From Curtobacterium sp. MCLR17_036 (GTDB taxonomy: Bacteria; Actinomycetota; Actinomycetes; Actinomycetales; Microbacteriaceae): a stretch of DNA of 64,000 nucleotides. Both the position numbers and the translations under genes were made by a program. Location of the stretch: assembly GCF_003234445.2 (NCBI RefSeq), contig NZ_CP126269.1, positions 2,852,001 through 2,916,000 on the forward strand. Direction: 5' to 3'. The notes below the pieces were generated by a model. The model was not told the origin of the DNA, did not search any database, and saw only the letters and a program-made list of their open reading frames with translations. Shown here in pieces: positions 9,403 through 51,576 of this stretch (its first letter is position 1; each line of letters starts with the position of its first letter).

Positions 9403-9446
9403 CGGACTGGAGGCCCGTGGCGGGCCCGCCACGGGCCTCCGGTCCG
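9403..9446. repeat. 44-bp palindrome, family F1, copy a
   Basis: Two arms meet without a loop at 9424/9425. The inner 16 bases of each arm (GGAGGCCCGTGGCGGG and its complement) are perfect, and the outer part has one mismatch. It fills the gap between the ATP-grasp gene and the sfnG-like gene, both leftward, and could end or attenuate transcription. Five other copies lie in this window. Confidence 0.85.
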
Positions 9447-9461
9447 GTGGGTCTTGCGTTC

Positions 9462-16864: not shown

Positions 16865-16910
16865 CCGGACGGGAGGCCCGTGGCGGGCCCGACCCGCGCC
16901 TCCTGTCCGG
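16865..16910. repeat. 44-bp palindrome, family F1, copy b
   Basis: The left arm CCGGACGGGAGGCCCGTGG pairs imperfectly with CGCCTCCTGTCCGG. It lies between rsmI and metG, both leftward, and may act as an intergenic terminator or attenuator. The left half is close to the family consensus; the right half has several changes. Confidence 0.75.
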
Positions 16911-19480: not shown

Positions 19481-19504
19481 CCGTCGGACCGTCGGACCGT
19501 CGGA
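19481..19504. repeat. Three tandem CCGTCGGA units
   Basis: The octamer CCGTCGGA occurs three times in a row at the left edge of palindrome F1c. A second low-complexity run made of CGTC and CGTT follows at about 19540-19615. No function is evident. Confidence 0.7.
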
Positions 19505-19544
19505 CGGGAGGCGCGGGTCGGCGCCGGCACGTGCCTCCCGTCCG
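19501..19544. repeat. 44-bp palindrome, family F1, copy c
   Basis: Arms CGGACGGGAGGCGCGGG and GTGCCTCCCGTCCG; the outer 12 bases pair perfectly and the centre is degenerate. It lies in the 259-base gap between the convergent mannosyltransferase and TetR genes and could terminate transcription from both sides. Confidence 0.8.
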
Positions 19545-22081: not shown

Positions 22082-22105
22082 CGCCGGTCCGCGGCGACAC
22101 GACGG

Positions 22106-22140
22106 CGACGGCCCGTCCCGGGAGACCGGGGCGGGCCGTC
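22106..22140 (+). terminator. Hairpin terminator after the efflux gene
   Basis: The stem CGACGGCCCGTCCCGG pairs with CCGGGGCGGGCCGTCG (one mismatch) around a GAGA loop, 24 bases after the stop codon. There is no T-tract, as is usual in such GC-rich genomes. It could also serve the converging AAA+ gene. Confidence 0.7.
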
Positions 22141-22202
22141 GTGCGTGCGGCGAGGCGGCGGACAGCTGATCGTGCGGCCGGGGCGGCGGGGCGGCAAGCG
22201 CA

Positions 22203-22245
22203 TGCGTGCGCATGGTGCGACGAAGCACCTGTCGAACGACGCGTG
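22203..22245. repeat. 43-base direct repeat, unit 1
   Basis: This unit matches the unit at 22274 in 34 of 43 positions without gaps. It contains a GGTGC-GACGAA-GCACC hairpin and GTCGAACGAC. Confidence 0.65.
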
Positions 22246-22273
22246 GTCCGACGGACTGTGCGCACGCAACCTC

Positions 22274-22316
22274 TGTGTGTGCACGTTCCGACGAACCACG
22301 TGTCGATCGACTCGTG
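22274..22316. repeat. 43-base direct repeat, unit 2
   Basis: This is the second unit, 71 bases after the first. It contains GTTC-CGAC-GAAC and the perfect palindrome GTCGATCGAC inside a longer near-palindrome centred at about 22306. Confidence 0.65.
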
Positions 22317-22373
22317 TCGTGTCGCGGACCCGCGCCGCGCGCCCCGAGGCCAGCGCAGGACGCTGCCCGCTCC

Positions 22374-22405
22374 CCCGCTCGCCCGCTCGCCCGCTCGCCC
22401 GCTCG
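22374..22405. repeat. Four tandem CCCGCTCG octamers
   Basis: Four exact copies of CCCGCTCG end one base before the AAA+ stop codon. This looks like slippage-prone simple sequence. Confidence 0.75.
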
Positions 22406-22406
22406 G

Positions 22407-25400
22407 TCAGGACACTGCTGACACCCCGGCGGGCAGCGCAGCAGCGTCGGCGGCGACCGTCACGTCCACGGCCTCGATGATCACCATCTCCTCTGCCGAC
22501 GGCTCGGACGACGGGTCCGCGAACAACCGCAGGTCCCGGGCACGGACGGCGTCGTCGAGGATGTTCCGCACCGCTCGACCGTTGCCCCACTCCCGGTCCG
22601 AGAACCGGCCGGTGTCCTCCGCCGCCGTCAGACGGCGCACCAGCAGCTCGCGAGCGTCCTCGGTGAACTGTTCGTGCGCCGCGACCGCCATGTGCTCCGC
22701 GATCCCGACGAGGTCCGCCGCCGAGTACGGGCGGAACGCGATGGTCTGCGTGAACCGTGACGGCAAGCCGGGGTTCGAGCGCAGGAAGCCTGCCATCTCG
22801 TCCGGGTACCCGGCGACGATCACCATGAAGGCCCCGCGGTCGTTCTCCATGCGGGCGAGCAGCGTGTCGATCGCCTCCTGCCCGAAGCTCCGGTCGCGGT
22901 CGGTGGCGAGCGTGTAGGCCTCGTCGATGAACAGCACGCCGCCCCGCGCCTCGGTGATGCGTTCCTCGGTCTTCGTCGCCGTCTGGCCGACGTAGCCGGC
23001 GACCAGCCCCGCCGCGTCGACCTCGACGACGTGACCGGACGGCAGCACGCCGAGGGCACGGTAGAGCCGCGCGAGGAGCCGGGCGATCGTGGTCTTGCCG
23101 GTCCCCGGCGGACCGGTGAACACGAGGTGCTCGACCAGGACCTGCCCGGTCGACATGCCCCGAGCCGTGCGAGCCTGCTGCGCGCGGACGCCCGCCATGA
23201 GCGACTCGACCTGCCGCTTGACCCCGGGCTGCCCTATCTGCGCCTCGAGTTCCGCCAGGACGTCCTCCACCGCCTCGACGGCCGGACCGTCGTCCGCCAG
23301 GACCGACCGGCAGGCCGCCTCGACGTCCGCCACGTCGATCTGGTCGAGGTCGACGCCGTCCGTCGGGGCTGTCCCGTCGGCAAACACCCGGGTGTTGCGG
23401 ACGCGGACCGCCTCGTCGACGAGGTTGCGGACGGCTCCGGCGTTCCCCCAGTCCGCACGGGCGAACAGACCGGAGCGTTCCGCAGCCGACAGCCGCGCGC
23501 GGAGCGCTCGCGCGGCGTCCTCCGTGAACCGTTCGTTCCTCGCCGCCGCCATCGAGGTCGCGATCTCGGCGAGTTGCTCGGCCGAGTACGACCGGAACTC
23601 GATCGTGGTCGGGAAGCGCCGGGCGAGTCCGGGGTTCGACCGCAGGAAGTCCGCCATCGGCTCCGGGTACCCGGCGGCGATGACGAGGAACCGACCGCGG
23701 TCGTCCTCCATGCGCTTGAGCAGCGTGTCGACCGCCTCACGCCCGAACGCGTCGCCGCCGGCGGTGAGCGCGTAGGCCTCGTCCACGAAGAGGACGCCGC
23801 CCATCGCCTCGTCGATCCGTTCGGTCGTCTTCGTCGCGGTCTGGCCCACGTAGCCGGCGACGAGGTCACCGCGGTCCACCTCGACGACCGTGCCGCCCGG
23901 CAGGAGTCCCAGCGCCCGGTACAGGCGCGCGATGAGCCGGGCGATCGTGGTCTTGCCGGTGCCGGGCGGACCGGTGAAGAGCAGGTGGGGGATGTCCGGC
24001 ACCGCCGCGCGTCCGTCGCGATCGGCAGCCGCTCGAGCGGCACGTGCGTTCGCGACGAGGGACTCGACCTGCCGCGCGACCTGGTCCTGCCCGATCTGGG
24101 CGCGCAGTTCCGCGAGCACGGTCTCGACGTCCTCGGTCGGTGCCGACAGACGGCCGACACCCTGGTCGTCGCACGCGACGACGACGTCCTCTTCCCGGAT
24201 CTCGACGAGGGCGTCCCCGTCGATGGTGTCGCCACCGAGTCCGGGCGCACCGGCGAGCAGCGCGCTGAGTCGGGCGTCCCGAGCGGTGGCCGCCCGGTCG
24301 ACCACGGTCCGCACCGTCCTCGCGTTGCCCCACGTGCGCTCTGCGAAGCGACCGGAGACCTCGGCTTCGCGGAGCCGGAGCCCGAGCCGGTCGACCGCCT
24401 CGCTGGTCAGGACGGCGCCGGAGTCCGACGCCATCTGCACGGCGATCGCGACGAGCTCGTCCGCGGAGTACGGCGTGAACTCGATGCGCTGCGGGAACCG
24501 TGAGGCGATGCCCGGGTTCGCCGCGGTGAAGGCGTCCATCTCGGTCGGGTAGCCAGCGGCGATGCAGACGAACGACCCGCGGCGGTCCTCGAGCGCCTTG
24601 AGCAGGGTGTCCAGCGCCTGTCGGCCGAAGTCGTTCTCGCCGCCGCTGGTGAGGGCGTACGCCTCGTCCACGAGCAGGACGCCACCCATCGCCCGCTCCA
24701 CCGCGGCGGTCGTCCGCTCCTCGGTGCCACCGACGTGCGCCGCGACGAGCGCCGCACGGTCCACCTCGACGAGGGTGTCCGAGGGCAGGAACCCGAGCGC
24801 GTGGTAGAGCCGCGCGACGAGCCGACCGATCGTGGTCTTCCCGGTGCCCGGAGGCCCGACGAACAGCAGGTGCCCCGCGGTCAGCTCGCCGTGCAGGCCC
24901 TTGTCCCTGCGGAGCTGCACGAGCTCCGCCTGTGCCACGACGTTGCGCACCTGCGCCTTGAGCTGGGCCTGCCCGACGACCGCGTCCAGTTCTGCGAGCA
25001 CGGCGGCCACGGCTTCGGGCCCCTGTGCCGGCGGGAGCGGCGGGAGCAGCTCGAGCCCGTCGTCCGGCTCCGCCTCGTCCCGGGCGGCTGCCTGTTCGTC
25101 GCGAGCGGACCGACGCAGCGACGCTCCCGACTCGTCGGGGCTCGTCCGCACGAAGCACTCGGGACCGTCCGAGGAACCGTCGGCACCAGTGCCCCAGAGT
25201 CGCACCTGTGATCCGTCGGCGGAGACGTGCAGTGCCACGGACTCGTAGCGGTGCTCCGCGGTCCAACAGACGAAACGCACCGCCGCACGGAGCCGTTCGA
25301 CGGGCACGTGCAGCCGTCGGGGCCGGCCGTCCAGGACCCCCGCCACGGGATCGCCGAGCAAGCCGGCGGCTCCCCGGACGAGGACGCGTTCGGGCGCGAG

Positions 25401-25937
25401 GGCGAGGGTGACGATCGGGGACGGCTCGACGGCCTCCGCGGTCACGAGGGTCTTCATGAACGTGTTCCGGTCGACCGTCGCGAGACTCGTCTGCCCGTCG
25501 ACGTCGCCCCAGCTCCCGTACGAGCCCTTGAGGTGCTCCAGCAGACGCGGCGACGTCCACATCGTCTGGTGCAGTACCGGCTCGCCTCCGGGTCCCGTGA
25601 CGACGACCTGTTGCCGGTCGTCGATCCAGCCGAGGCCGATGGACACCTCGTCGTCGTCGTCGAAGTGCTCGGCGAGCTCGAGCACGAAGCTCGGCGGCAA
25701 CGTCAGCCAGGTCGTCACGAGCGGGACCGCCTCGAGGACCGGTTCGAGGGCGACGTGCACGCCGTCGGACGCGATCAGCTGGACACGGGTGTCCTCGTCG
25801 ACCCACAGCCCCAGCCCGTCCAGCACGCCCGAGCCGTCGGCGGTGCGGAACCCGTCGGTCCTGGTGGCAGCGCGGCGGAGGGCACCGACCGTCAGCCGCA
25901 GGACCTGCTCGACGTCCCTGAGCCGTCCGGCGCTCAC
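22407..25937 (-). CDS. Triple CbxX/CfxQ-type AAA+ ATPase with N-terminal clamp-like region
   Basis: This 1176-residue protein has three tandem AAA+ modules. Walker A GPPGTGKTT occurs at about residues 360, 656 and 942, each followed by Walker B VDEAYAL or IDEAYTL and a RFPxxIEF/RFTQTIAF segment. The family includes the Rubisco activase CbbX, SpoVK and the N-terminal partner domain of EccA. Modules 2 and 3 keep the pore-loop motif AGYVGQT, while module 1 has AAHVGGT. The first 320 residues are unrelated to AAA+ and show weak sliding-clamp-like patterns. No ESX secretion genes are near. GTG at 25937 overlaps the upstream stop (GTGA). A remodelling role on a protein partner, perhaps products of the adjacent genes, is inferred. 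Confidence 0.85.
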   Translation of the reverse strand: MSAGRLRDVEQVLRLTVGALRRAATRTDGFRTADGSGVLDGLGLWVDEDTRVQLIASDGVHVALEPVLEAVPLVTTWLTLPPSFVLELAEHFDDDDEVSIGLGWIDDRQQVVVTGPGGEPVLHQTMWTSPRLLEHLKGSYGSWGDVDGQTSLATVDRNTFMKTLVTAEAVEPSPIVTLALAPERVLVRGAAGLLGDPVAGVLDGRPRRLHVPVERLRAAVRFVCWTAEHRYESVALHVSADGSQVRLWGTGADGSSDGPECFVRTSPDESGASLRRSARDEQAAARDEAEPDDGLELLPPLPPAQGPEAVAAVLAELDAVVGQAQLKAQVRNVVAQAELVQLRRDKGLHGELTAGHLLFVGPPGTGKTTIGRLVARLYHALGFLPSDTLVEVDRAALVAAHVGGTEERTTAAVERAMGGVLLVDEAYALTSGGENDFGRQALDTLLKALEDRRGSFVCIAAGYPTEMDAFTAANPGIASRFPQRIEFTPYSADELVAIAVQMASDSGAVLTSEAVDRLGLRLREAEVSGRFAERTWGNARTVRTVVDRAATARDARLSALLAGAPGLGGDTIDGDALVEIREEDVVVACDDQGVGRLSAPTEDVETVLAELRAQIGQDQVARQVESLVANARAARAAADRDGRAAVPDIPHLLFTGPPGTGKTTIARLIARLYRALGLLPGGTVVEVDRGDLVAGYVGQTATKTTERIDEAMGGVLFVDEAYALTAGGDAFGREAVDTLLKRMEDDRGRFLVIAAGYPEPMADFLRSNPGLARRFPTTIEFRSYSAEQLAEIATSMAAARNERFTEDAARALRARLSAAERSGLFARADWGNAGAVRNLVDEAVRVRNTRVFADGTAPTDGVDLDQIDVADVEAACRSVLADDGPAVEAVEDVLAELEAQIGQPGVKRQVESLMAGVRAQQARTARGMSTGQVLVEHLVFTGPPGTGKTTIARLLARLYRALGVLPSGHVVEVDAAGLVAGYVGQTATKTEERITEARGGVLFIDEAYTLATDRDRSFGQEAIDTLLARMENDRGAFMVIVAGYPDEMAGFLRSNPGLPSRFTQTIAFRPYSAADLVGIAEHMAVAAHEQFTEDARELLVRRLTAAEDTGRFSDREWGNGRAVRNILDDAVRARDLRLFADPSSEPSAEEMVIIEAVDVTVAADAAALPAGVSAVS

Positions 25938-26644
25938 CGTCGACCGTCCGCTCGCAGGTGACCCGTCCGGTGACCCGGCAGGGTCGTCCGCCGCGGTGCG
26001 GGGTCGGTCGCGGGCGTGGGGAGGGACGGCATGACGACGGGCCTGGCCTTGGCGGGCGTCGGCGCCGGCGCTCCGGGCGCGGTGGCCGCCGTGGACGGGA
26101 CGGTCGCCGGCGGCACCGCCACCGTGGCCGGAGCCGCGTCGGCCAGCTCGGTGCTGTAGTCGTCCTCGAACACCTCGAACACCTCGTCTCGACGGCCCCT
26201 CGTCCAGCGTGCGGCCGGGACGACGGTCGTCCATCCCGCTCCTGTCGGGAAGCACCCGACGCTGGTGTTCGCGGCGACGGCCGACGTGCTGACCGTCGCT
26301 CCACCCGCGACGTGGCGGACGGACACCGCGCCCGGGTCGACCCCGATCTGCACGAGACCGCTCGCGGGCAACGACGCACCGACCGAACGGGCCAGGTCGG
26401 TCCCGAAGAACACCCGGTCGTCCTGTCGGCGGAGTGTCCGTCCGCTCACGTGCGCGATCGCCCCGTGGGCGAGGCCCCGGTCCGATCCGGCGAGCAGGTG
26501 CAGGTCCGCCGTGCCGCCCTCGAACAGCACGTGCAGGCGGATGCGGTCCCACGGTGACGGGTTCGCAGCCGATGCGAACGGGGCGACGTGGGCGAGGGCG
26601 GTCCGGAGGTCGTCGACCTCGACCTCGAGCAGCCAGGTCGTCAC
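25934..26644 (-). CDS. Unknown 236-residue protein, possible clamp-like fold, Pro/Ala-rich tail
   Basis: I do not recognise a named family. Residues 1-150 have a pattern of short strands (LLEVEVDDLRTALAHVAPF, LHLLAGSDRGLAHGAI, SGLVQIGVDPGAVSVRHVA) loosely like a domain of the DNA sliding clamp DnaN; this is a fold guess only. Residues from about 175 are rich in Pro, Ala and Thr and likely disordered. The gene overlaps both neighbours by 4 bases (GTGA at each end), so its product is probably made in fixed proportion to the NERD protein and the AAA+ protein. A resemblance to the N-terminal region of the AAA+ protein suggests the two may pair. Confidence 0.6.
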   Translation of the reverse strand: MTTWLLEVEVDDLRTALAHVAPFASAANPSPWDRIRLHVLFEGGTADLHLLAGSDRGLAHGAIAHVSGRTLRRQDDRVFFGTDLARSVGASLPASGLVQIGVDPGAVSVRHVAGGATVSTSAVAANTSVGCFPTGAGWTTVVPAARWTRGRRDEVFEVFEDDYSTELADAAPATVAVPPATVPSTAATAPGAPAPTPAKARPVVMPSLPTPATDPAPRRTTLPGHRTGHLRADGRR

Positions 26645-28044
26645 GCCGCTCCGCACGCCACGCAGAAGCCGATGTCCGCGGTGACGGTCGCGCCGCACGA
26701 GGAGCAGGGACGCGACCCGTCGTCCTCGGCCGTGCTCGGCTCCGTCGCCGGCTGCGTGGCCGTGGCACGGGCGGTCGCGACCGCCCGTGCCGGTGTGGCC
26801 GTGGCCGTCGGGAGGCGGCGCTCACCGAGGGTCGGCGCGGAGCCGCTCTCGTCCTTGAGCAGCGCCGACAGGATCGGGACGAGGAGCTCCGCGTTCTCGT
26901 CCGAGGGGACGAAGTCCGGCTCGTCCTCGAGCCAGCGCAGGAGGTCCGGCAGCCCCGCCGCCGGGACGTCCCCCGGCCACGAGACGTCCTGGACCCGGCC
27001 GAGACCGTTGTCCCGTGGCATCATCACGACGACCGGCTTCAACGCCGTCCGGATGCCGAGGTTCCGCATCTTGCGGTCGAACCGCTCACGGGCGAGCTTC
27101 ATGTTCCCCGACATCTTGCGCGGGTGTCCGACCGCCCCCTCGGTCTGCAGGTCGATCGCGATGAGCGTCGGTACCGAGGACCGGCCCTGCGCGTCCTCGC
27201 GCTCGACGGTCCACCGGACGCCGCCCTGGTCGTAGTTCTTCACGTCGACGAGCCAGATCGAGGACCCGGTGACCACGACGCAGTCGATGTCCGTCTGGAG
27301 CTGCTTGCTCGCTCCGACACCCTCGTCCGGCATGTGCACGGACCAGAACGTGGCGAAGCGTCCGAGCAGCCCGCGCTGCTCGAGGACCCTGGCGAAGTTG
27401 ACCTCGCCCTCCCTGCCGCGCTCGATCGCGCGCTCGTCGAACCCCGATCCGCCGAGACCGGCACCGGGGTCTCCGTACATCCACGGGTTCGGTCCGATCT
27501 CGACGTCCACCAGCTCACTCGGTTCGTACCCGGTGCGCTCGCCGTCCCCCGACGGCCGCGCCGCCCACTTCCGGTCGCGCTCCACGCGGGCGACGTGGTC
27601 GAGCTCGCGTTCGCGGTTGGACCGGATCCGTTGCTCCTCGGCGGCGCGCACGAGGTCGGCCGCGTCCACCGCTGCGCCGGTACGGATGCTCGACGCGAGG
27701 GCAGGGCGGGCGATGGTCGCGGCGACGACCGCGAGCGACCACAGCAGGTGCACCGGGAGCACGTGGCCGGCAACCGGTGCCGACGACGCTGTGACGATGC
27801 CACCCAGCACCGCGGTCGCGAGCGCTGCGATCGACACGATGGTGCCGAGCACACCCGACCGGGGACGGAAGTAGTCCCGCGCCACCCGACCCGCGAGCGC
27901 CAGGCCGACGATCACGGCGAACCACGCGGGCGAGGTCAGACCGCCGACCAGCCAGCTCAGACCGTTCAGGATGGTCAGCACCGCGACCAGGACGTCCGCG
28001 GTGCGCGCGTACCTCCGCCGCCGGGTCTCCAACGGACCGCTCAT
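26641..28044 (-). CDS. Membrane-anchored NERD nuclease-like protein with zinc ribbon
   Basis: This 467-residue protein has about four membrane helices in its first 115 residues, a charged linker (130-200) and a NERD domain from about 205 to 330. The NERD core resembles PD-(D/E)xK nucleases: ERGREGEVNF (Glu213), QTDIDCVVV (Asp252/254) and WLVDVKNY (Asp267, Lys269), so the putative catalytic residues are present. The C-terminus has a double CxxC zinc ribbon (CSSC and CVAC within the last 25 residues) after an Ala/Thr-rich linker. It probably acts at the cytoplasmic face of the membrane. ATG at 28044 gives a basic N-terminus before the first helix. Its stop overlaps the next gene. Confidence 0.8.
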   Translation of the reverse strand: MSGPLETRRRRYARTADVLVAVLTILNGLSWLVGGLTSPAWFAVIVGLALAGRVARDYFRPRSGVLGTIVSIAALATAVLGGIVTASSAPVAGHVLPVHLLWSLAVVAATIARPALASSIRTGAAVDAADLVRAAEEQRIRSNRERELDHVARVERDRKWAARPSGDGERTGYEPSELVDVEIGPNPWMYGDPGAGLGGSGFDERAIERGREGEVNFARVLEQRGLLGRFATFWSVHMPDEGVGASKQLQTDIDCVVVTGSSIWLVDVKNYDQGGVRWTVEREDAQGRSSVPTLIAIDLQTEGAVGHPRKMSGNMKLARERFDRKMRNLGIRTALKPVVVMMPRDNGLGRVQDVSWPGDVPAAGLPDLLRWLEDEPDFVPSDENAELLVPILSALLKDESGSAPTLGERRLPTATATPARAVATARATATQPATEPSTAEDDGSRPCSSCGATVTADIGFCVACGAA

Positions 28045-28070
28045 CTTCGTTCCTCTCGTCGAGCGCACGG

Positions 28071-28247
28071 TCAGCTCCGCCCCGCCACGGTCCAGAGGAC
28101 GGCGGAGAGCCCGAGCAGGCCGAAGCCGATCCCGAAGCGTGCCGGCCGTCGTGCCCGGAACCGCCGCGGCGTGAAGAGCGCGACGAAGAGCACGATGCCG
28201 CCGACGAGCGCGACCACCGAGGCCGTCGTGGAGAGGAGCTGGTTCAC
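28071..28247 (-). CDS. Small two-helix membrane protein
   Basis: This 58-residue protein has two hydrophobic helices (about residues 8-25 and 38-55) joined by a strongly basic loop (PRRFRARRPAR). No family is recognisable. It begins with GTG at 28247, lies 26 bases upstream of the NERD gene on the same strand, and is preceded by three 9-base iterons, so it is probably the first gene of the four-gene run ending with the AAA+ gene. Small membrane proteins in such positions often anchor or gate a partner, but no role can be assigned. Confidence 0.6.
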   Translation of the reverse strand: MNQLLSTTASVVALVGGIVLFVALFTPRRFRARRPARFGIGFGLLGLSAVLWTVAGRS

Positions 28248-28272
28248 ATCGCCGACCGTAGGTGTGCGGACG

Positions 28273-28305
28273 TGTCCGGACGGGTGTCCGGACCGCTCTC
28301 CGGAC
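28273..28305. promoter_or_regulatory. Three TGTCCGGAC-type iterons with 12-base period
   Basis: TGTCCGGAC occurs at 28273 and 28285, and TCTCCGGAC at 28297, spaced exactly 12 bases. They lie 26-58 bases upstream of the small membrane gene start on its strand. Each contains the self-complementary TCCGGA. A site for a DNA-binding regulator, perhaps the neighbouring HTH protein, is the simplest reading. Confidence 0.55.
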
Positions 28306-28328
28306 AACCCCGGACAGCGGTCGACCGG

Positions 28329-29384
28329 TCAGTCGGTGAGGGGCGCCCCGGTCGAGGTCGCCGACCGCCGCTCGAGCAGCACGAGGAGCCCGAACGCCGC
28401 GAAGGTGGTCAGGACCTTGTCGACGACGGACGCCCCGAGGTTCGCCAGGGCGACCGCCGCCCACGGTCCGTCCCCGGCCGCCGACAACACGTCGATGTAC
28501 GCCTGGGTGCCGTGCGTCACGGTGGCCTGGTACGCGAGCACCGTCACCGGAGTCGCCACGGCGGTGCACCCGACGGCCACCACGAGGCCGAGCACGAGCA
28601 GCCGCCACGGCGACCGCTGCAGGCTCCACTGCCGGACGCCCACTCCCCAGAGCACCCCGGCCACGGCGCCGACGAGCGCGAACCAGAACGAGGTGGGCCC
28701 GTGCGCGAGCTGGTTGAGGAGCACCGCTCCGGCACCGACCCCGGCACCGATCCACGGGCCGAGTCGGAGGGCGACGACGGCGGTGCCGATCGTGTCGAGC
28801 CAGATCGGCAGGTGGAACTGTCCCGAGACGCTGGCACCGAAGAGGTCGATTCCGACGGCAGCGGCGACGAGCAGCGCGAGGGAACCGGCGTCGGGACGGT
28901 GACCGGCCCCGGTCGGCCACCAGCGGCGGACCGACGCGACCGCCGTGGGGACCGAGCCGGTCCGCGGAGCCGCCCCGGGCCTCCCGATCGGCCGCTCGTC
29001 GGTCTCCGGACGGGCGGCCGGAGCCGAACCGACCGTGGGTCCGGCGGTCCACGTCGCCGGAGCCGCCCCGTCTGCCGCGACCACCGGCGAGCGCGCCGCG
29101 CGCTCCCACGCCTCGACGTCACCGTCCGCGACGCCGAGGACACGGACGACCTCACCGACGAGCACGGCGTTCAGCCGGGTGCGTCCCGGGCGGAAGACGT
29201 CGTAGACCGTGGACCGCGCGATCCGCGCTGCCCCCTCCTGCGTACCGGCGGCGAGCCGGCGAGCGGTGATCCGTGCGGCGATGTCGCCGTACGAGGGATC
29301 GCCGGCGGTGTGTCGCAACCGCTGCAGGCGGTCTGCGAACGCCTCCGTGGTCGCCGGTCCGACCTGCTGTTCCCGCGTGCTCAC
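28329..29384 (-). CDS. XRE-like HTH fused to an ECF S-component-like membrane domain
   Basis: This 351-residue protein has a divergent helix-turn-helix at about residues 31-84 (SYGDIAARITARRL and GAARIARSTVYDVFRPGR), a Pro/Ala-rich linker (100-165) and a membrane domain (165-345) with about six helices. The membrane part resembles ECF transporter S-components: LPIWLDTIGTAVVALRLGPW and GAVLLNQLAHGPTSFWFALVGAVAG are characteristic. There is no ECF ATPase or T-component nearby. The fusion suggests a membrane-bound transcription regulator that senses a small molecule, or one tied to membrane state. GTG at 29384 is selected because TATGTT (29427-29422) and a palindrome precede it. Confidence 0.7.
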   Translation of the reverse strand: MSTREQQVGPATTEAFADRLQRLRHTAGDPSYGDIAARITARRLAAGTQEGAARIARSTVYDVFRPGRTRLNAVLVGEVVRVLGVADGDVEAWERAARSPVVAADGAAPATWTAGPTVGSAPAARPETDERPIGRPGAAPRTGSVPTAVASVRRWWPTGAGHRPDAGSLALLVAAAVGIDLFGASVSGQFHLPIWLDTIGTAVVALRLGPWIGAGVGAGAVLLNQLAHGPTSFWFALVGAVAGVLWGVGVRQWSLQRSPWRLLVLGLVVAVGCTAVATPVTVLAYQATVTHGTQAYIDVLSAAGDGPWAAVALANLGASVVDKVLTTFAAFGLLVLLERRSATSTGAPLTD

Positions 29385-29396
29385 GTACTGACTCTC

Positions 29397-29412
29397 CCCC
29401 GGTGATCCGGGG
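29397..29412. promoter_or_regulatory. Palindrome upstream of the HTH-membrane gene
   Basis: CCCCGG-TGAT-CCGGGG is a perfect inverted repeat 13-28 bases before the GTG start and about 10 bases after a TATGTT -10 candidate on the minus strand. It could be an autoregulatory site or an mRNA leader hairpin. Confidence 0.45.
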
Positions 29413-29563
29413 AACCAACATACCGAGGCGGACTCGGTCCGGCTGGCACCCGAAGGGGGGACCACGACGGTGCTCGACGCCGTCGGGTTCGTCGGGGCCC
29501 GACCGTTGCGCCGTGTGTCCGTTCCCCTCGCAGCCGTCAGGGGTCGGAGTTATGGTGTGCGGC

Positions 29564-30430: not shown

Positions 30431-30622
30431 CCCGGCGGCGAGCGGGCCGACCGGGCCGGCGGCCGACCGGGCCGACCGACCGACCCGGCAGCCGACCGGG
30501 CCGACGGCGGCCCCGTCCGAGCGACTACCCGGCCGACCCGGCCGACCGCTGCCCGGCGCCCGACGAGACCGCCCCGGCAGACCCGGCACGTGCGACCGCC
30601 CCGGCACGGCTAGCGTGGGCAC

Positions 30623-42349: not shown

Positions 42350-42426
42350 CGACGCGCTCGCCCGCCCGCCCGCCCGCCGCTGACGCTCCTGGGCCCGCAC
42401 CGCAGCGTCGGGTGGTGACCGGCAGA

Positions 42427-42470
42427 CGGACGGGAGGCACGTGACCGGCCCGCCCCGTGCCTCCCGACCG
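42427..42470. repeat. 44-bp palindrome, family F1, copy d
   Basis: Arms CGGACGGGAGGCACGTG and CCCCGTGCCTCCCGACCG; the outer arms pair well and the centre is degenerate. It lies between convergent genes, 10 bases before repeat F2b. Confidence 0.8.
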
Positions 42471-51491: not shown

Positions 51492-51515
51492 ATGCGCGTC
51501 GGTCCGGACCGGCGA

Positions 51516-51559
51516 CGGACGGGAGGCCCGTGACGGCGCCGCCACGGGCCTCCCGTCCG
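51516..51559. repeat. 44-bp palindrome, family F1, copy e
   Basis: This copy is close to the family consensus: arms CGGACGGGAGGCCCGTGACGG and its near-complement, centre at 51537/51538, one internal mismatch pair. The pairing can be extended two bases on each side. It lies 24 bases after F3b, between convergent genes. Confidence 0.9.
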
Positions 51560-51576
51560 TCGGCTGGTCGCCCCGG

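What the first reader, a model, noticed from the sequence alone, without database searches (positions are those of the whole stretch)
22407..29384. Five-gene leftward block: HTH-ECF-like membrane protein, small membrane protein, membrane NERD protein, clamp-like protein and triple AAA+ ATPase
The last three genes overlap by 4 bases at each junction, and the small gene lies 26 bases before them. The set combines a sensor-like membrane protein, a possible membrane nuclease (NERD, PD-(D/E)xK-like residues intact), an unknown protein and a large AAA+ remodeller. NERD and AAA+ proteins each occur in defence and stress islands, but I know of no described system with this composition. The neighbours are housekeeping or unrelated metabolic genes, so it looks like a self-contained cassette. 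Function is inference.
Basis: partly seen in the sequence, partly recalled or inferred. Interest (0 to 1): 0.78.

Follow-up and report, generated by a model that had tools for sequence, protein, structure and literature searches.

The report
Split-clamp AAA+ membrane nuclease cassette
A Curtobacterium strain carries a rare, exchangeable five-gene cassette that combines a membrane-anchored, nuclease-like protein with a protein motor and parts that resemble the ring holding the copying machinery on DNA; it may be an unrecognised defence against invading DNA, but it is untested.

The parts
28329..29384 (-). Regulator-like membrane protein: N-terminal HTH-like region plus ECF transporter S-component-like membrane domain (351 aa); probable regulator or sensor of the cassette
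   Evidence: NF045596 E 2.3e-20, below cut-off; HTH_31 E 0.64 only; 4 hydrophobic segments; 79% identical in L002
28261..28305 (.). Four-copy 12-bp array (consensus GGTGTCCGGAC, 75% matches) between the regulator-like gene and the small-NERD-clamp-AAA run; candidate operator
   Evidence: TRF; TCCGGAN6TCCGGA exact twice here; 4 matches with up to 1 mismatch in the window, 0 of 100 shuffles reach 4; array kept in L002
28071..28247 (-). Small membrane protein, 58 aa, two candidate TM segments
   Evidence: 97% identical in L002
26641..28044 (-). Membrane NERD protein: about 4 TM segments (aa 18-109), charged linker, NERD domain (aa ~209-320; E214, D254, D267, K269), variable linker, C-terminal zinc ribbon; predicted nuclease effector
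   Evidence: PF08378 above cut-off; catalytic-type set invariant in 20 aligned sequences, four Cys at least 90%; TM
26270..26644 (-). Single sliding-clamp (DnaN-like) domain, residues 1-125 of the 236-aa middle protein
25934..26269 (-). Pro/Ala-rich C-terminal tail of the middle protein, low model confidence, ends in the GTGA overlap with the AAA+ gene
   Evidence: pLDDT under 50 over 125-232; 77% identity to L002 against 88% for residues 1-125
25158..25895 (-). N-terminal region of the AAA+ protein (aa 15-260): probably two further DnaN-like clamp domains; the second is very weakly supported
   Evidence: hhalign to DnaN 31.6, 0 of 300 shuffles reach it; HMMER 10.7 bits, 0 of 1000 shuffles, second segment 0.9 bits; AF2 model failed, pLDDT 35.6
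22407..25937 (-). Triple AAA+ ATPase (SpoVK/EccA/CbbX clade), 1176 aa; predicted remodelling motor
   Evidence: TIGR02881 720.9 bits, three stretches; Walker A/B and arginine-finger-like motifs in all three modules
22082..29502 (.). Exchangeable segment with the five genes, strongly diverged between two strains whose flanks are 98-99% identical
   Evidence: sliding identity; upper edge at the base level, 198 identical bases then divergence; dS 0.15-0.36 against 0.04-0.06. The low edge lies between 22.0 and 22.25 kb; 22082 is the base after the MFS-like gene

Best explanation
An exchangeable conflict cassette, most likely anti-phage or anti-plasmid. SHOWN by sequence: a membrane-anchored NERD protein with an intact PD-(D/E)xK-type set and a zinc ribbon is encoded in one overlapping run with a middle protein and a triple AAA+ motor, and this trio recurs in another family. 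SHOWN by one moderate-confidence model: the middle protein holds one DnaN-type clamp domain. PROBABLE: the AAA+ N-terminus holds more clamp domain, so that a clamp protomer is split over two chains and hard-wired to the motor. INFERRED: the SpoVK/EccA/CbbX-type AAA+ works as a dedicated remodeller that opens, closes or loads this private clamp on DNA entering or replicating at the membrane (or uses it as bait for replisome proteins) and hands that DNA to, or unleashes, the NERD nuclease. Membrane anchoring and the ATP-driven step would keep the nuclease off the host chromosome. The upstream HTH/ECF-like gene would control the set through the conserved 12-bp array.
For: Core trio with both 4-bp overlaps in Curtobacterium and in L020, another family. 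Clamp fold of the middle protein. AAA+ N-terminus similar to DnaN. The L020 middle gene matches the chromosomal DnaN in 4 of 297 genomes, all of its own genus, E 1.6e-4 to 8.5e-4 per genome (DnaN by 93-100% identity to L031, and by TIGR00663 in the two scanned); BLASTP E 3e-6. NERD residues invariant in 20 sequences. Exchange as a unit. Rarity: full-length NERD in 2 of 66 genus genomes, both one species. NERD relatives in GAP1/DO-GTPase2/HSP70 loci and beside type I and IIG restriction genes. NERD domains also sit in BREX PglW and DndF (passages read).
Against: No functional data. PADLOC: no hit for 4 of the 5 proteins, ATPase-type matches for the fifth (25 of 28 shown). Neighbours of the window block and of L020 look metabolic in translation. 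NERD relatives stand without detected AAA+ or clamp genes (L021, L044). The L022-L024 relatives are distant (26-30% identity). Only one of five AF2 models of the middle protein reached pLDDT 50; the others had 28-34. No Pfam clamp model hits. The AAA+ N-terminal model failed. The L020 middle gene found no match in the window's own genome, tblastn at 1e-2 found 0 of the 4 DnaN loci with it, and it scores weakly on the DnaN profile (8 of 1000 shuffles as good). The clamp parts are not net basic: -2 and -14; DnaN is acidic overall too (recalled), so this does not decide DNA binding.
Confidence: 0.46

Rival explanations
1. Envelope or cell-division factor: the NERD domain is a non-nuclease membrane scaffold, as for SmdA of Staphylococcus aureus, and the EccA/SpoVK-type AAA+ is a dedicated chaperone acting at the envelope.
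For: SmdA is a membrane NERD protein needed for normal cell morphology, and characterised SpoVK/EccA relatives act on envelope or secretion targets (passages read).
Against: SmdA lacks several of the most conserved NERD residues, whereas E, D, D and K are invariant in the 20 sequences here; the block is missing from most genomes searched in the genus, odd for a division factor; clamp domains have no obvious envelope role.
Confidence: 0.12
2. DNA maintenance module: a private clamp, a motor and a nuclease process the cell's own stalled forks or broken DNA at the membrane rather than foreign DNA.
For: DnaN-like parts, a nuclease-type domain and an AAA+ motor are repair-like; chromosomal site among metabolic-looking genes.
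Against: Patchy distribution and replacement by a divergent allele suit conflict better than core repair; SpoVK/EccA/CbbX relatives are described as protein remodellers, not clamp loaders.
Confidence: 0.2
3. Decoy or sensor variant of the defence reading: the clamp domains never encircle DNA but bait clamp-binding peptides of phage or plasmid replication proteins; the AAA+ then activates the NERD, possibly as a suicidal effector.
For: One clamp domain is a separate small protein with a fast-evolving tail; the clamp parts are not basic; NERD has been proposed as a suicidal backup effector in PglW and DndF (passages).
Against: The peptide-binding cleft was not tested; no binding data.
Confidence: 0.15

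Closest known systems
GAP1/DO-GTPase/HSP70 conflict systems (eLife 2020, PMC7159879; passages read)
   Same: Multi-gene, actinobacterial, NTPase/chaperone-centred systems; L045 and L022 show such loci carrying a relative of this NERD
   Different: No GTPase, GAP1 or HSP70 seen in this block; its NTPase is a triple SpoVK/EccA-type AAA+ and it adds clamp-like parts. NERD does not occur in the text of that paper.
SNIPE (PMC13190303; abstract and passages read)
   Same: Membrane-anchored nuclease as a way to spare host DNA
   Different: SNIPE is one protein, DUF4041 plus GIY-YIG nuclease; here NERD, clamp-like protein and AAA+ are separate genes. NERD, AAA and sliding clamp do not occur in its text.
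NERD-bearing BREX PglW and DndF (PMC12839542, PMC10853773; passages read)
   Same: NERD domain as a predicted nuclease effector in defence
   Different: There NERD is fused to kinase modules or the DndF core in large proteins; 'clamp' and 'DnaN' are absent from the Dnd text, 'sliding clamp' and 'DnaN' from the BREX text
SpoVK/EccA/CbbX AAA+ clade (preprint PMC10659427; passages read)
   Same: Same AAA+ clade, variable N-terminal domains, dedicated-target chaperones
   Different: N-terminal domains named there are TPR, beta-helix, beta-prism and SF1 helicase; 'clamp' and 'nuclease' do not occur in its text
DnaN, DNA polymerase III beta clamp
   Same: Domain fold of the middle protein; weak sequence similarity of the AAA+ N-terminus
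   Different: One domain in the middle protein here, the rest apparently in the AAA+ chain; no match to clamp family models
SmdA (PMC9040797; passages read)
   Same: Membrane NERD protein
   Different: Single TM helix, several conserved NERD residues missing, cell-morphology role

Membership tests
NERD (PF08378) | Profile match above the curated cut-off | tested here: met
   32.0 against 22.1 bits
NERD (PF08378) | PD-(D/E)xK-type residues | tested here: met
   E214, D254, D267, K269 invariant in 4 and, as E240/D280/D293/K295 of L020, in 20 aligned sequences; that these are the catalytic ones is recalled
NERD (PF08378) | Nuclease activity | not testable with these tools
   needs biochemistry; a NERD activity had not been shown experimentally according to the 2022 SmdA paper (passage)
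DnaN sliding clamp | Clamp domain fold | tested here: met
DnaN sliding clamp | Clamp domains in the AAA+ N-terminus | tested here: inconclusive
   profiles beat shuffles, AF2 model failed
DnaN sliding clamp | Match to curated DnaN models | tested here: not met
   no clamp model for the middle protein in Pfam or NCBIfam, for AAA+ 1-330 in Pfam, or for the L020 middle protein in either; so clamp-like, not a DnaN
DnaN sliding clamp | Closed ring around DNA | not testable with these tools
   needs structure or biochemistry
SpoVK/EccA/CbbX AAA+ clade | Clade model scores and lid domain | tested here: met
   TIGR02881 720.9 (cut-off 422.95), TIGR03922 688.7 (466.65), TIGR02880 541.2 (459.25), whole-protein scores with three stretches each; AAA_lid_6
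EccA of type VII secretion | ESX gene context | not tested
   no search for ESX genes was run
SNIPE | DUF4041 and GIY-YIG domains | tested here: not met
   no such Pfam match in the four other block proteins or in the 25 of 70 families shown for the AAA+ protein
GAP1/DO-GTPase/HSP70 conflict system | DO-GTPase, GAP1 or HSP70 genes | tested here: not met
   absent from the Pfam lists of the five block proteins as shown (25 of 70 for the AAA+); all three kinds present in L045, HSP70 and DO-GTPase2 in L022
IetAS defence | IetA equivalog score | tested here: not met
   69.9 bits against cut-off 510; PADLOC IetA 77.9 bits looks like generic AAA similarity

The most novel reading that the evidence does not exclude
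A new class of conflict system in which a private sliding clamp, split over two polypeptides and fused to a SpoVK/EccA-type triple AAA+ motor, is loaded on or captures foreign DNA and delivers it to a membrane-anchored NERD nuclease; the same nuclease family is plugged into different NTPase control modules (clamp-AAA+ here, GTPase-HSP70 elsewhere).
Probability: 0.32. Interest if true: 0.9.

Novelty: new variant of a known kind. Interest (0 to 1): 0.71.

Why it matters
If true, the replication clamp fold has been taken over as a sensor or DNA tether in bacterial immunity and hard-wired to a motor that is not a clamp loader. It would give membrane NERD proteins, whose activity had not been shown experimentally by 2022 (passage of PMC9040797), a testable effector role, and show one nuclease family under several NTPase control modules. 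Literature: no paper holds 'NERD domain', 'sliding clamp' and 'AAA' together; none holds NERD, Hsp70, GTPase and conflict systems; the one paper with three of NERD, GAP1, DO-GTPase and HSP70 has no NERD; a two-of-six search on clamp and CbbX/EccA/SpoVK terms listed 9 papers, one with 'sliding clamp', on helicases by its title. Only the held open-access library was searched.

Tried and rejected

Viral contigs: no relative of the NERD alignment or the clamp alignment. Phages: no NERD match. Plasmids: no clamp or L020-middle match; two records with NERD relatives, Arthrobacter and a Bifidobacterium breve megaplasmid. Nothing shows the cassette itself on a phage or plasmid.

Protein search with AAA+ 1-320 returned only the protein itself. 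It scored only the 7995 best candidates and did not list the L002 protein that I know exists, so it is no evidence of absence. Order search with the same region: 2 of 297 genomes, self and G235 (E 5.8e-4, internal stop); G235 showed only generic AAA similarity.

Empty-site test: stretches of two other single-contig genomes of the genus at guessed positions (10 x 20 kb of each, and again in 114) did not contain the flanking genes; only paralogues at about 27-33% identity turned up. Whether the site is empty elsewhere is unknown.

Genus hits G001 and G086 to the NERD C-terminal part (E 2e-5, 1.2e-4, internal stops) were checked by tblastn only. G188, G190 and G215 (E 2.8e-4 to 5.5e-4) were not fetched. 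L026 was fetched but its neighbours not classified.

Promoter scan found nothing; terminator-like sites 3, mean 0.9 expected by chance.

Profile comparison of the middle protein with DnaN is weak: P 0.051, 4 of 300 shuffles as good, 1 of 1000 by HMMER; its relative P0003 scores 11 of 1000. The fold match carries that claim. The L020 middle gene: 8 of 1000 shuffles as good, other register in hhalign (P 0.0026), 0 of 4 DnaN loci found with it by tblastn at 1e-2. NERD control P 0.34. A three-way alignment of clamp parts was too gapped to use. In one search HMMER reported only 436-667 of each 1000 shuffles; unreported ones count as lower.
Full report
WHAT IS THERE. The window lies in a 3.64-Mb single-contig genome. 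One named close relative is Curtobacterium sp. MCBA15_009 (L002); its contig length, 322554, equals that of the G074 contig, and G074 is the only other genome of the same species in the genus search, so L002 and G074 are probably one genome. NERD, middle and AAA+ genes overlap by GTGA at both junctions. The neighbours read as a sulfurtransferase-like and an MFS-transporter-like gene and other metabolic-looking genes (my reading of translations, no family search). No tRNA gene was found in the window.

DOMAINS. NERD protein: about four N-terminal TM segments (hydropathy), NERD domain (32.0 bits, cut-off 22.1) and a C-terminal zinc ribbon (below cut-off). A profile search listed 19 proteins at E 1e-20 or better, only the 7996 best candidates being scored. 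In an alignment of 20 rows (17 of these plus window, L002 and L020) E, D, D and K are invariant and the four zinc-ribbon cysteines at least 90% conserved. AAA+ protein: three modules of the SpoVK/EccA/CbbX clade with Walker A, Walker B and arginine-finger-like motifs in each. The regulator-like gene has an ECF-S-like membrane domain below cut-off and only a weak HTH.

A SECOND LINEAGE. Of 297 genomes drawn from the order, 9, self included, had a NERD match at E 1e-3 or better; I fetched stretches around six NERD places in five genomes, plus one for an AAA hit. G359, of another family, has NERD (37% identity, zinc ribbon included), a 292-aa middle gene and an 890-aa AAA+ with two modules, in that order with 4-bp overlaps at both junctions. 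Its middle gene matches the genome's own DnaN and that of three congeners (E 1.6e-4 to 8.5e-4 per genome, 297 genomes searched; all four loci encode DnaN, 93-100% identical to L031); BLASTP to L031 gives E 3e-6, 24% identity. But tblastn at 1e-2 does not find these loci and the DnaN profile scores it weakly, so this link is suggestive. It aligns over 33 residues, 16 identical, with the AAA+ N-terminus of the window (E 7e-5), though the genome search found no match in the window's own genome. If that holds, the clamp-like part sits in the middle gene there and is shared with the AAA+ gene here, a domain-shuffling sign that they work together. The L020 Walker A reads GxPGTAKT in both modules.

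RARITY AND EXCHANGE. The clamp protein occurs in 1 of 59 related genomes, self, and has 3 relatives, self included, in a 5.8-billion-protein word search. NERD matches at E 1e-3 are in 4 of 66 genomes of the genus, full-length in 2; the regulator-like gene in 2 of 66; NERD relatives at E 1e-8 in 3 of 299 genomes of the family, self included. Between window and L002 the five genes have dS 0.15-0.36 and three flanking genes 0.04-0.06, means 0.276 and 0.048. Identity drops between 22.0 and 22.25 kb and recovers at 29.5 kb; at the upper edge 198 identical bases end abruptly at about 29503. Two windows around 30.25-30.75 kb are also low, across an intergenic break. So the five genes moved or were replaced together. 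dN/dS is highest for the middle gene (0.38) and the regulator-like gene (0.37), 0.18 for NERD and AAA+, 0.12 for the small gene and 0.04-0.18 for the flanking genes.

CONTEXT OF NERD RELATIVES. Outside Curtobacterium I looked at ten loci: L020 (core trio); L045 (GAP1-N2 and GAP1-M, two DO-GTPase2, two HSP70; fn3 below cut-off); L022 (two HSP70, one with vWA, GrpE, DO-GTPase2; DnaJ and TPR below cut-off); L023 (type I HsdM); L024 (two type IIG enzymes); L086 (annotated adenine methyltransferases and ImmA/IrrE); L032 (plasmid, integrase about 4 kb away); L021 (glutamate dehydrogenase and TetR beside it; no window clamp or AAA+ match) and L044 (metabolic-looking; no clamp or AAA+ match); L026 (not classified). 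Four of ten lie in or beside conflict or restriction genes by family search; L022 and L023 are one genome. L022-L024 are distant relatives (26-30% identity). The L045 gene set resembles the HSP70-bearing theme of GAP1-N2 systems (passages of PMC7159879), whose text does not mention NERD.

MECHANISM. AAA+ proteins of this clade are described as dedicated chaperones for one target (preprint PMC10659427, passages). Such a motor, a private clamp-like part and a membrane nuclease in one overlapping run suggest that the motor remodels the clamp, the nuclease or both. I favour DNA capture at the membrane followed by NERD cleavage; SNIPE shows that membrane anchoring can spare host DNA (PMC13190303, abstract and passages). 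A decoy role for the clamp is a live alternative. The HTH/ECF-like gene, with a conserved 12-bp array directly before the small-NERD-clamp-AAA run, is the likely regulator.

LIMITS. 

Noticed in passing
L045:8290-19765 (G431, same family as the window): A GAP1-N2/DO-GTPase2/HSP70 conflict locus carries a short NERD protein (L045 9886-10690, minus) with D-x-K intact; NERD is not mentioned in the text of the paper on such systems that I checked.
   Followed up: partly
L022:1683-14166 (G189): Second GTPase-HSP70 locus (HSP70-vWA, HSP70, GrpE, DO-GTPase2, DnaJ/TPR-like below cut-off) with a NERD fused to an FtsK-like part (below cut-off).
   Followed up: partly
L023 and L024: Distant NERD relatives beside a type I methyltransferase (HsdM) and beside two type IIG restriction-methylation enzymes.
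   Followed up: partly
L020:6190-8862: Both AAA modules have a Walker A with Ala before Lys (GxPGTAKT) instead of Gly; activity unclear.
   Followed up: no
window:28261-28305: Conserved 12-bp tandem array before the small-NERD-clamp-AAA run; GTCCGGAC occurs 11 times in the window, so a wider regulon is possible.
   Followed up: partly
window about 9403-9448, 16866-16909, 19487-19544, 42425-42470, 51514-51563: Short dispersed repeat (about 45 bp, several copies matching in both orientations) shared with L002 17103-17152 and 19740-19786; looks like a REP-type intergenic element.
   Followed up: no
window about 30490-30532: Local alignment break between the two strains outside the cassette, between the sulfurtransferase-like and the next gene.
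   Followed up: no
L086 (Bifidobacterium breve megaplasmid pMP7017, 26043-27464): Plasmid-borne NERD relative annotated as zinc ribbon protein, next to ImmA/IrrE and near DNA methyltransferase genes.
   Followed up: no
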